From Chryseobacterium geocarposphaerae (GTDB lineage Bacteria > Bacteroidota > Bacteroidia > Flavobacteriales > Weeksellaceae), in NCBI RefSeq assembly GCF_002797535.1, contig NZ_PGFD01000001.1:744001-808000 (forward strand): a stretch of 64,000 nucleotides of DNA, read 5' to 3'. The translations under genes were made by a program, and so were the position numbers. This document shows, piece after piece, positions 4,154 to 5,850 of this stretch. The notes under the pieces were generated by a model. That model was given only the letters and a program-made list of their open reading frames with translations. It was not told the DNA's origin and ran no database searches. How positions within the stretch are numbered: position 1 is the stretch's first letter; every line of letters begins with the position of its first letter.

Positions 4154-5239
4154 ATGGAAAATTTTATTGTATCTGCAAGAAAGTACCGCCCGCAAGAGTT
4201 TGATACCGTTGTTGGGCAATCTCACATTACAGATACTTTAGAGCATGCGATTGAAGAAAATCAATTAGCTCAGGCTCTGCTTTTTTGCGGGCCCAGAGGA
4301 GTTGGTAAAACAACGTGTGCCAGAATTCTGGCTAGGAAGATCAATGAAAAAGATGGTTCTGTTTCAGAAGATGGCTTTGCGTATAATATCTATGAATTAG
4401 ATGCAGCGTCTAATAACTCTGTGGATGATATCAGGGAATTGATAGATCAGGTCCGCTTTGCTCCTCAGGTTGGTAAATATAAAGTATATATTATCGACGA
4501 GGTTCATATGCTGTCTTCTGCTGCTTTTAATGCTTTTCTTAAAACATTGGAAGAGCCGCCTGCTCATGCAATCTTTATTTTGGCAACTACAGAGAAACAC
4601 AAAATCATTCCTACGATTTTATCCCGTTGCCAGATTTATGATTTTAAAAGAATTACCATTGAAGGTATTCAGGGACACCTTAGGAATATTGCTCAGAAAG
4701 AGAATGTACAGTATGAAGATGATGCTTTATACTTAATTGCTCAAAAAGCCGACGGAGCGTTAAGAGATGCACTTTCTATTTTTGACAGGCTTTCCACATT
4801 TTCCCAGAAAAATATTACACTGGCGAAAGCTGCTGAAGTATTGAATATCCTGGATTATGATCAATATCTTAATATTGTTGATTTAGCCAAAGAAAATAAA
4901 ATTCCTGAAGTATTATTCTCTTTCAACGAAATTGTAAAAAAAGGATTTGATCCACATATTTTTATTGCAGGTTTAGGAAATCATTTCAGAGATCTAATGA
5001 TGGCTCAAAATGCCTCTACAATAGAATTAATAGAAGTGGGAGAGCAAACCAAGGCAAAGTTTGTGGAACAGGCCCAAAAATGGAATGCTCAACAATTAAT
5101 AGACGCCATTGAAATTTGTAACCATGCGGATATTAATTACAAAAATTCTAAAAATCCTAGGCTTACTGTAGAGATCGCTTTGATGCAGCTAGCTTCTTTA
5201 ACGGCTAATGGAGACGTTGCAAAAAAAAAAAGTTCATAA
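4154..5239 (+). CDS. dnaX: DNA polymerase III subunit gamma/tau, zero-frame (gamma-like) product
   Basis: The 361-residue zero-frame product is the clamp-loader ATPase: Walker A GPRGVGKT at residues 46-53, Walker B IIDEVHML at 113-120, and the SRC sensor at 157-159, then the lid and collar domains. The four zinc-ligand cysteines usual in E. coli-type DnaX are absent. The frame ends at a stop directly after an 11-A run (5221-5231). The -1 frame continues open to 5850 and encodes the tau-type C-terminus. This matches the gamma/tau frameshift architecture known in E. coli and Thermus. A missing A in the assembly would look identical. Confidence 0.88.
   Translation: MENFIVSARKYRPQEFDTVVGQSHITDTLEHAIEENQLAQALLFCGPRGVGKTTCARILARKINEKDGSVSEDGFAYNIYELDAASNNSVDDIRELIDQVRFAPQVGKYKVYIIDEVHMLSSAAFNAFLKTLEEPPAHAIFILATTEKHKIIPTILSRCQIYDFKRITIEGIQGHLRNIAQKENVQYEDDALYLIAQKADGALRDALSIFDRLSTFSQKNITLAKAAEVLNILDYDQYLNIVDLAKENKIPEVLFSFNEIVKKGFDPHIFIAGLGNHFRDLMMAQNASTIELIEVGEQTKAKFVEQAQKWNAQQLIDAIEICNHADINYKNSKNPRLTVEIALMQLASLTANGDVAKKKSS
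5221..5232 (+). promoter_or_regulatory. Slippery A11-G run, candidate programmed -1 frameshift or transcript slippage site
   Basis: Zero frame reads GCA AAA AAA AAA AGT TCA TAA. A -1 shift gives AAA AAG TTC ATA ATA and enters a frame open for about 200 codons. A GGAG sits 7 nt upstream (5210-5213), like the internal Shine-Dalgarno stimulator in E. coli dnaX, though Shine-Dalgarno use is weak in this phylum. Only a weak 6-bp hairpin (5252-5257 with 5266-5271) lies downstream. Confidence 0.6.
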
Positions 5240-5850
5240 TATTAGCTCCGTTTCTTGAAGAAAAGCAAGAAGTTAAAATTCCCGTACCGGCACAACCTCA
5301 GGAAATAAAAGAAACAAAGATAGAAGCTGTAGTTTCTGTTCAGGAGGAAAATGTCATTATTAAAACCTCTAAACCTTTATCAAAGCGCCCGTCTACATCA
5401 GGATTCAGCATTAATTCTTTTCTGAATAAAGAAGAAAAAACAGAAGTAGACGAGAATGTAGCGGTAAAAACCGAAAATCTTCCACAAAACCATTTTACAG
5501 ATACCGATCTTCAGATGGAATGGAACCTTATGCTAAAACAATTGCAGAAGAAAGATTCATTCATTTTTAATGCGGTGAAAACATTCAAAATGTTTAAGTC
5601 AGCTGAACATCAGATTACAGTTTCTTATCCTTCAGATTCTGCAAAGGTTGAGTTTGATAAAGTGAGTGGTGAGTTTTTCAACCATTTTAGAAGGAAAGTC
5701 CATAACTATTCCATCGAGATTGAATATAAGAGAGACTTCGAAAATCTCAAGGTGGAAGTAATGACCAAAAGAAAAATCTTCGAAAAATTTGTAGAAAAAA
5801 ATCCTCTTTTGAAAGATCTTGATGATTTAATGAGGTTTGATTTGACATAA
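5240..5850 (+). CDS. dnaX: DnaX tau-specific C-terminal region (-1 frame extension)
   Basis: This frame has no start codon near its beginning and is joined to dnaX only by a -1 shift on the A run. The first ~90 codons form a low-complexity linker rich in E, K, P, V and T. The rest, from about 5515, is a compact domain (EWNLMLKQLQKKDSFIFNAV and onward) of the kind at the C-terminus of Bacteroidota DnaX, expected to bind the polymerase alpha subunit. The joined tau product would be about 565 residues. It could instead be the second half of a gene split by a sequencing error. Confidence 0.75.

What the first reader, a model, noticed from the sequence alone, without database searches (positions are those of the whole stretch)
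5200..5850. dnaX reads through an 11-A run into a -1 frame: candidate gamma/tau frameshift
The clamp-loader ATPase ends in a stop four codons after the A run begins, while the -1 frame, with no start codon, continues for ~206 codons and encodes a tau-type C-terminus. The short product stops at the collar domain, as E. coli gamma does. A GGAG lies 7 nt upstream of the run. Programmed frameshifting or slippage is known for dnaX in E. coli and Thermus; the run here is long enough for RNA-polymerase slippage. I do not know of a description in this group.
Basis: partly seen in the sequence, partly recalled or inferred. Interest (0 to 1): 0.75.

Follow-up and report, generated by a model that had tools for sequence, protein, structure and literature searches.

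The report
Poly-A slippage site in dnaX
The gene for a DNA-replication clamp loader carries a run of eleven A's that most likely makes RNA polymerase stutter so that one gene yields a short and a long protein; a similar run is kept in most of the related bacteria examined even where the reading frame around it has changed.

Summary
Confirmed: dnaX ORF1 (4154-5239, 361 aa) reads into 11 A's (5221-5231) and stops; the tau C-part (5230-5850, 206 codons) is in the -1 frame. It is unlikely to be an error or pseudogene: 148 of 148 same-genus genomes have dnaX, 146 with an open frame of 361-376 codons. Of 295 dnaX loci (nearest relatives over-represented, two duplicates), 265 have a run of at least 8 A's (186 exactly ten) and a tau frame open for at least 140 codons. 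Relative to ORF1, tau lies in the -1 frame in 168, the same frame in 92, the +1 frame in 5. Both non-tau frames stop within 10 codons in 248 of 265. On a tree of 218 sequences the tau frame changed at least 31 times, by one A or by flank indels, while the run stayed. No conserved Shine-Dalgarno or hairpin was found in the genus. This fits RNA-polymerase slippage (Thermus type), indifferent to template frame, better than -1 ribosomal frameshifting. No RNA or protein was measured. Two-ORF poly-A dnaX was reported in 2013 (PMC3711429), so this is a member of a known kind. By-product: one Bacteroidales family often has an in-frame UAG plus a hairpin instead.

The parts
4154..5239 (+). dnaX ORF1: AAA+ ATPase, lid and domain III (collar); by itself the 361-aa gamma-type product
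   Evidence: TIGR02397 dnaX_nterm 1.1e-117; PF13177, PF22608, PF12169
5221..5231 (+). run of 11 A: the proposed slippage site; the tract is kept in relatives
   Evidence: run of 8 or more with open tau frame in 265 of 295 loci; ten A columns invariant in 30 of 30 aligned genus loci
5237..5239 (+). TAA closing the template frame (gamma end)
5256..5258 (+). TGA closing the third frame, 8 codons after the run
   Evidence: read by eye; one search stop distances 2, 8, 206
5230..5850 (+). tau-specific C-part in the -1 frame (206 codons): variable linker then conserved C-terminal domain
   Evidence: NF011531 columns 435-613; dN/dS medians 0.31 (linker) and 0.10 (C-domain); alignment of 56 C-termini from all three frame classes
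5210..5213 (+).
   Evidence: not conserved: 12 of 80 genus-like loci

Best explanation
The gene makes two clamp-loader subunits. RNA polymerase slips on the A11 tract, so dnaX mRNAs carry different numbers of A. mRNAs with 11 A (or 11+3n) lead into the TAA at 5237 and give gamma (361 aa); those with 12, 15 ... or 9 A lead into the tau frame and give tau (about 565 aa); the remaining class runs into the TGA at 5256 and gives a second gamma-like protein. Because the mRNA population fills all three frames, the frame written in DNA matters little: relatives keep the run but have tau in frame 0, -1 or, rarely, +1. SHOWN here: the run, the three frames and their stops, homology and purifying selection of the tau part, conservation, frame flips, lack of a conserved SD or structure in the genus. 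INFERRED: slippage itself, its rate, the two proteins, and what each does (tau bridging polymerases and helicase, gamma in clamp loading: recalled from E. coli).
For: (1) 265 of 295 loci keep a run of at least 8 A (10 A: 186; 11: 51; 9: 22; 12: 3; 8: 2; 13: 1) with an open tau frame (two of the 265 are duplicates). (2) Tau frame -1 in 168, 0 in 92, +1 in 5; at least 31 changes on a 218-tip tree; 10 genus labels hold more than one state. Near-identical flanks differ by one A (L159 A11/frame 0 against L190 A10/frame -1), or an equal A10 has a different flank (Aquimarina L037 against L041), which a homopolymer miscall cannot explain. (3) Both non-tau frames stop within 10 codons in 248 of 265; mean of the farther stop 7.2 codons, codon-shuffle null 20.9; in 23 loci with 50-70% GC after the run 10.7 against 36.5. 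(4) In 92 frame-0 loci the +1 frame, which -1 shifting never visits, is closed at 5.9 codons against null 19.1. (5) GC-rich genomes can keep A10: L276 has 64% GC and Lys codons AAA:AAG 0:14 in ORF1. (6) The base after the run is G in 164, T in 56, C in 45 of 265, and zero-frame A_AAA_AAG occurs in 43 of 265, so it is not required. (7) Seven of 120 listed database proteins near this one are full tau of 564-567 aa; all seven read K4-5 then F at the junction. (8) Published: an A11 cassette from another gene gave 63% frameshifting in E. coli (PMC3711429 section 24); A9 slippage makes gamma and tau 1:1 in Thermus (PMC5009743 section 21).
Against: No transcript or protein evidence. In the 168 frame -1 loci the third-frame stop is hardly closer than chance (mean 6.9 against null 8.4, mean percentile 0.53), so closure of both off-frames by selection rests on the other classes. 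Zero-frame A_AAA_AAA, itself slippery for ribosomes, is present in 264 of 265 loci, and A_AAA_AAG in 23 of the 88 frame -1 loci outside the genus-like set, so ribosomal slipping could contribute. Genus downstream sequence folds somewhat better than codon shuffles (mean z -1.3, first 60 of 80; other 185 loci -0.45), although no consensus structure appears. Only 5 of 265 loci need a +1 shift; some could be homopolymer miscalls. The run is under 8 or absent in 19 of 295 loci. Sampling favours near relatives; tree branch support was not examined.
Confidence: 0.78

Rival explanations
1. Programmed -1 ribosomal frameshifting: ribosomes slip on A_AAA_AAA and continue in the -1 frame to make tau.
For: Direction fits the window and 168 of 265 loci; zero-frame A_AAA_AAA is in 264 of 265 loci and A_AAA_AAG in 43 of 265; a GGAG lies upstream; weak genus fold signal, mean z -1.3; the review notes a Chlorobium candidate with stimulators (PMC5009743 section 21).
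Against: Cannot make tau in the 5 +1-frame loci; A_AAA_AAG in 0 of 80 genus-like loci; SD-like motif in only 20 of 80; no consensus structure in 30 genus sequences, window fold z -0.08, no Rfam dnaX element within E 5; the +1 frame is closed in frame-0 loci although -1 shifting never enters it.
Confidence: 0.17
2. Replication slippage (phase variation): cells differ in A number, so a population is a mix of gamma-default and tau-default cells.
For: Run length varies among close species (A10 51, A11 27, A12 2 of 80 genus-like loci); P0007 and P0008 have five and four lysines at the junction.
Against: A lone dnaX lacking tau in part of the cells would be costly if tau is essential, as expected for a replicase organiser (recalled, not tested); closed off-frames and frame indifference are better met per mRNA than per cell.
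Confidence: 0.04
3. The -1 ORF is a separate protein started internally.
For: An ATG at 5515 opens a 111-aa ORF.
Against: The residue at that place is M, S or N among rows shown; the linker before it is under purifying selection (0.31) and its first 10 columns are well conserved (0.82); 92 of 265 loci encode the parts as one frame.
Confidence: 0.01

Closest known systems
Thermus thermophilus dnaX (A9 transcriptional slippage)
   Same: A run at the gamma/tau boundary, other frames closed by nearby stops, two products expected from one gene
   Different: Thermus writes tau in the template frame; here tau is in the -1 frame of the template (as in 168 of 265 loci)
Two-ORF dnaX cluster of Antonov et al. 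2013 (PMC3711429; 17 genes, 12 genera, nine with ten A)
   Same: Gamma stops in the template frame after poly-A; tau lies in the -1 frame; slippage proposed by the authors
   Different: In the sections I read only Chlorobi are named among the poly-A cases; they do not report the spread in Bacteroidota or the frame flips found here. The supplement, which shows the nine A10 cases, was not available
E. coli dnaX -1 programmed ribosomal frameshift
   Same: Gamma/tau pair from one gene at an A-rich site
   Different: There tau is default and gamma comes from the shift, with A_AAA_AAG, upstream SD and stem-loop; none of the three is conserved in the window's genus
Shigella mxiE (slippage needed for the longer product)
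   Same: Two overlapping ORFs joined by transcriptional slippage (PMC1088944, passages seen)
   Different: Run of U, a transcription activator, not a clamp-loader pair

Membership tests
dnaX expressed by transcriptional slippage (Thermus type) | Uninterrupted A run of 9 or more at the gamma/tau boundary | tested here: met
   A11 at 5221-5231
dnaX expressed by transcriptional slippage (Thermus type) | Stops close by in both frames other than tau | tested here: met
   TAA 2 and TGA 8 codons after the run; 248 of 265 loci within 10 codons
dnaX expressed by transcriptional slippage (Thermus type) | Tau in the template frame | tested here: not met
   Window: -1 frame; met in 92 of 265 loci
dnaX expressed by transcriptional slippage (Thermus type) | mRNAs heterogeneous in A number; gamma and tau proteins about 1:1 | not testable with these tools
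   no RNA or protein data
Two-ORF poly-A dnaX (Antonov 2013) | Two overlapping ORFs, -1 shift at DNA level, poly-A at the junction, both parts gamma/tau family | tested here: met
E. coli-type dnaX -1 PRF | Zero-frame A_AAA_AAG heptamer | tested here: not met
   Zero-frame codons GCA AAA AAA AAA AGT; 0 of 80 genus-like, 43 of 265 all loci have it
E. coli-type dnaX -1 PRF | Upstream SD stimulator | tested here: inconclusive
   GGAG in the window, not conserved
E. coli-type dnaX -1 PRF | Downstream stem-loop | tested here: not met
   z -0.08; no consensus pairs; genus mean z -1.3 is weak contrary evidence

The most novel reading that the evidence does not exclude
Across much of Bacteroidota the dnaX reading frame on DNA is nearly neutral: a maintained run of about ten A's makes RNA polymerase supply all three frames, so indels at the junction that would kill another gene only swap which subunit is the unslipped product (at least 31 swaps on a 218-tip tree). 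Where the run is lost, another recoding device can replace it, such as an in-frame UAG with a recurring 3' hairpin in one Bacteroidales family.
Probability: 0.6. Interest if true: 0.78.

Novelty: new member of a known kind. Interest (0 to 1): 0.6.

Why it matters
If true, much of a large bacterial phylum depends on RNA-polymerase stuttering to make its replicase organiser; several public records from this family already list only a 361-aa 'gamma/tau' protein, and natural pairs differing by one A are ready-made tests of slippage. It would also be a core replication gene whose template frame evolves freely, testable in laboratory flavobacteria. The UAG variant would be a second route to the same two subunits, for which my searches found no description.

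Tried and rejected
Assembly error or pseudogene: rejected. Three genus loci with A9 (L279, L280, L297) have no frame open beyond 43 codons after the run and were left out of the counts as probable miscalls; that is a judgement, not shown. SD- or hairpin-stimulated ribosomal frameshift: not supported. Internal start: not supported. A first dN/dS for ORF1 was off by one base and is void; one search gives 0.038. The dN/dS of the tau part in the UAG loci (0.50, 142 pairs) is from diverged pairs and does not settle selection there.

Full report
OBSERVATION. The window lies at G000:C1:744001-808000 of a 4.11-Mb genome. The nearest named locus is Chryseobacterium lathyri, 96% identical over ORF1 (L034), so the genus is inferred to be Chryseobacterium. 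ORF1 (4154-5239, 361 aa) matches gamma/tau models over the ATPase, lid and collar. It reads GCA AAA AAA AAA AGT TCA TAA through 11 A's at 5221-5231. The -1 frame 5230-5847 matches the end of the same NCBIfam model. No second dnaX and no second copy of the tau part was found in the genome.

CONTROLS. A9 is depleted in the window (5 overlapping matches, 3 of them in this run; shuffles 26 +/- 8). The genome has 19 distinct A/T runs of 10 or more (overlapping matches merged by me); of three that are 11 or longer only the dnaX run lies in an ORF of at least 80 aa.

CONSERVATION. Genus search: 148 of 148 genomes have dnaX; the best-match open frame is 361-376 codons in 146, 350 in G063, and split in G127. 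Family search: 141 of 143 matched, 138 with a short frame (361-419 codons) and 3 with a continuous one (G197, G162, G254). I then read 295 dnaX loci: all loci except three paralogues, plus 140 regions that I chose for spread and for odd cases; so the proportions are not those of an even sample. 276 have a run of 8 or more; 265 also have a tau frame open for 140 codons or more. The 30 left out: 19 without such a run (several Bacteroidales and non-Bacteroidia; L109 and L113 among them end near a contig end), L071, L208 and L222 cut by contig ends, L080 and four 600-kb genomes with a shorter part after the run (L226-L229; L226 and L228 have A11 with the longest frame in +1), and L279, L280 and L297, probable miscalls. 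Two of the 265 are duplicates of others (L034, L202). 47 family labels and 117 family/genus label pairs are covered (labels come from two naming schemes that overlap, and 'None' is one).

FRAME. Tau is taken as the longest open frame after the run; it is frame -1 (168), 0 (92) or +1 (5) of ORF1. Outside the 80 genus-like loci it is 88, 92 and 5 of 185. On a tree of N-terminal parts (218 rows: from 265, 260 distinct and stop-free, genus-like rows above 91% cut to 18) the label changes at least 31 times (quick method, branch support not examined). Close pairs show how: one A more or less (L159/L190, L045/L046, L161/L197), or the same A10 with an altered flank (L037/L041, both Aquimarina). The second kind cannot be a homopolymer miscall.

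STOPS. In 248 of 265 loci both non-tau frames stop within 10 codons; the mean of the farther stop is 7.2 codons against 20.9 after codon shuffling (mean percentile 0.20), and in 23 loci with 50-70% GC after the run 10.7 against 36.5. By class: for frame-0 loci both off-frames are closer than chance (5.9 against 19.1; 2.0 against 11.3). For frame -1 loci the template stop is (2.7 against 15.3) but the third frame is not clearly so (6.9 against 8.4). The last figure is against a strict reading for the window's own class.

SIGNALS. SD-like 4-mers in 20 of 80 genus-like loci (105 of 265 overall); next base G 164, T 56, C 45 of 265. Zero-frame A_AAA_AAA is in 264 of 265 loci; zero-frame A_AAA_AAG in 43 of 265, in 0 of 80 genus-like loci and in 23 of the other 88 frame -1 loci, so a ribosomal contribution is not excluded there. 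No consensus structure in 30 genus sequences, window z -0.08; a mild mean z of -1.3 in the first 60 of 80 genus-like loci, -0.45 in 185 others, remains unexplained. No Rfam dnaX element. Ten A columns are invariant in 30 of 30 aligned genus loci although AAG is 24% of lysine codons in genus-like ORF1. L276, with no AAA among 14 ORF1 lysine codons, still has A10.

TAU PART. Median pairwise dN/dS in genus-like loci: C-domain 0.10 (242 pairs), linker 0.31 (683 pairs), ORF1 codons about 140-340 0.04 (221 pairs). Fifty-six C-termini that I chose from all three frame classes align, with W42, N135 and P136 nearly invariant. Seven of 120 listed database proteins are full-length tau with K4-5 then F at the junction; whether these come from DNA or RNA assemblies, or from miscalls, is not known.

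MECHANISM. RNA-polymerase slippage explains the retained homopolymer, indifference to template frame, closure of the off-frames and the lack of conserved ribosomal signals in the genus. A -1 ribosomal shift could add tau in the window but not in the 5 +1 loci. I put slippage as the main mechanism at 0.78.

LITERATURE. PMC3711429 sections 23 and 24 read and passages: two-ORF dnaX, 17 genes in 12 genera, nine with ten A, slippage suggested; an A11 cassette from another gene gave 63% frameshifting in E. coli. PMC5009743 section 21 read and passages. PMC1088944 passages. PMC9976891: abstract start in listing only. Searches (80, 82 and 83 returned nothing) listed no title or abstract start on dnaX slippage in Bacteroidota beyond these; subscription papers and all supplements are outside what I could see, so the genera of the nine A10 cases remain unknown to me.

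BY-PRODUCT. In the family of L104 (uncultured Bacteroidales), at least 46 of 117 matching genomes show exactly one TAG inside the dnaX match (rows counted by eye, query genome included; three others show TAA). Of 31 loci read (L102, L104 and the 29 best), 27 have gamma ending at an in-frame TAG with a further 193-260 codons open in the same frame and 4 are continuous. TAG-AT(T/A)-GC-N-AG and a following short hairpin recur, with changed stems such as CGCC/GGCG, GCC/GGC and GTCC/GGGC (stems picked by script without a shuffle control, and two loci gave only a doubtful one). RF1 is present in 3 of 3 genomes; no CUA tRNA appeared in the 30 of 41 tRNA loci scanned of one genome. No Rfam match in four of these loci. 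Of 20 further family loci, two have the in-frame TAG, two a TAG with the long frame in +1, ten an A run of 9-11 at or near the junction, L372 neither, and five are continuous without a run of 7 or more.

Noticed in passing
L104:3087-3173, L102:2776-2862, L326-L354 (27 of 31 loci): In one Bacteroidales family dnaX often has no A run; gamma ends at an in-frame TAG, tau continues in the same frame, and a recurring TAG-ATW-GCN-AG plus hairpin element follows: candidate programmed UAG readthrough (or stop-start reinitiation).
   Followed up: partly
L359, L361: Same family: a TAG at the gamma end with the long frame in +1 and a similar downstream element; a possible +1 shift at the stop.
   Followed up: no
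L084, L085, L107: Run-less Bacteroidales dnaX with GGGGCGTAGC(C/T)C at the junction, a possible short hairpin; tau is continuous in L084 and L107.
   Followed up: no
L226, L228: Two 600-kb genomes: A11 then TGA closes ORF1 and about 130 open codons lie in +1; several genomes of the same genus label have a longer single frame.
   Followed up: no
L306, L322 (loci of the window's genome): Two other ORFs (498 and 390 aa) of the genome are read through ten A's; possible further slippage or hypermutable sites.
   Followed up: no
L075: A MAG labelled Chryseobacterium gleum has a dnaX only 58% identical to the window's, far below the 89-99% seen for the main matches in the window's genus; probably mislabelled.
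   Followed up: no
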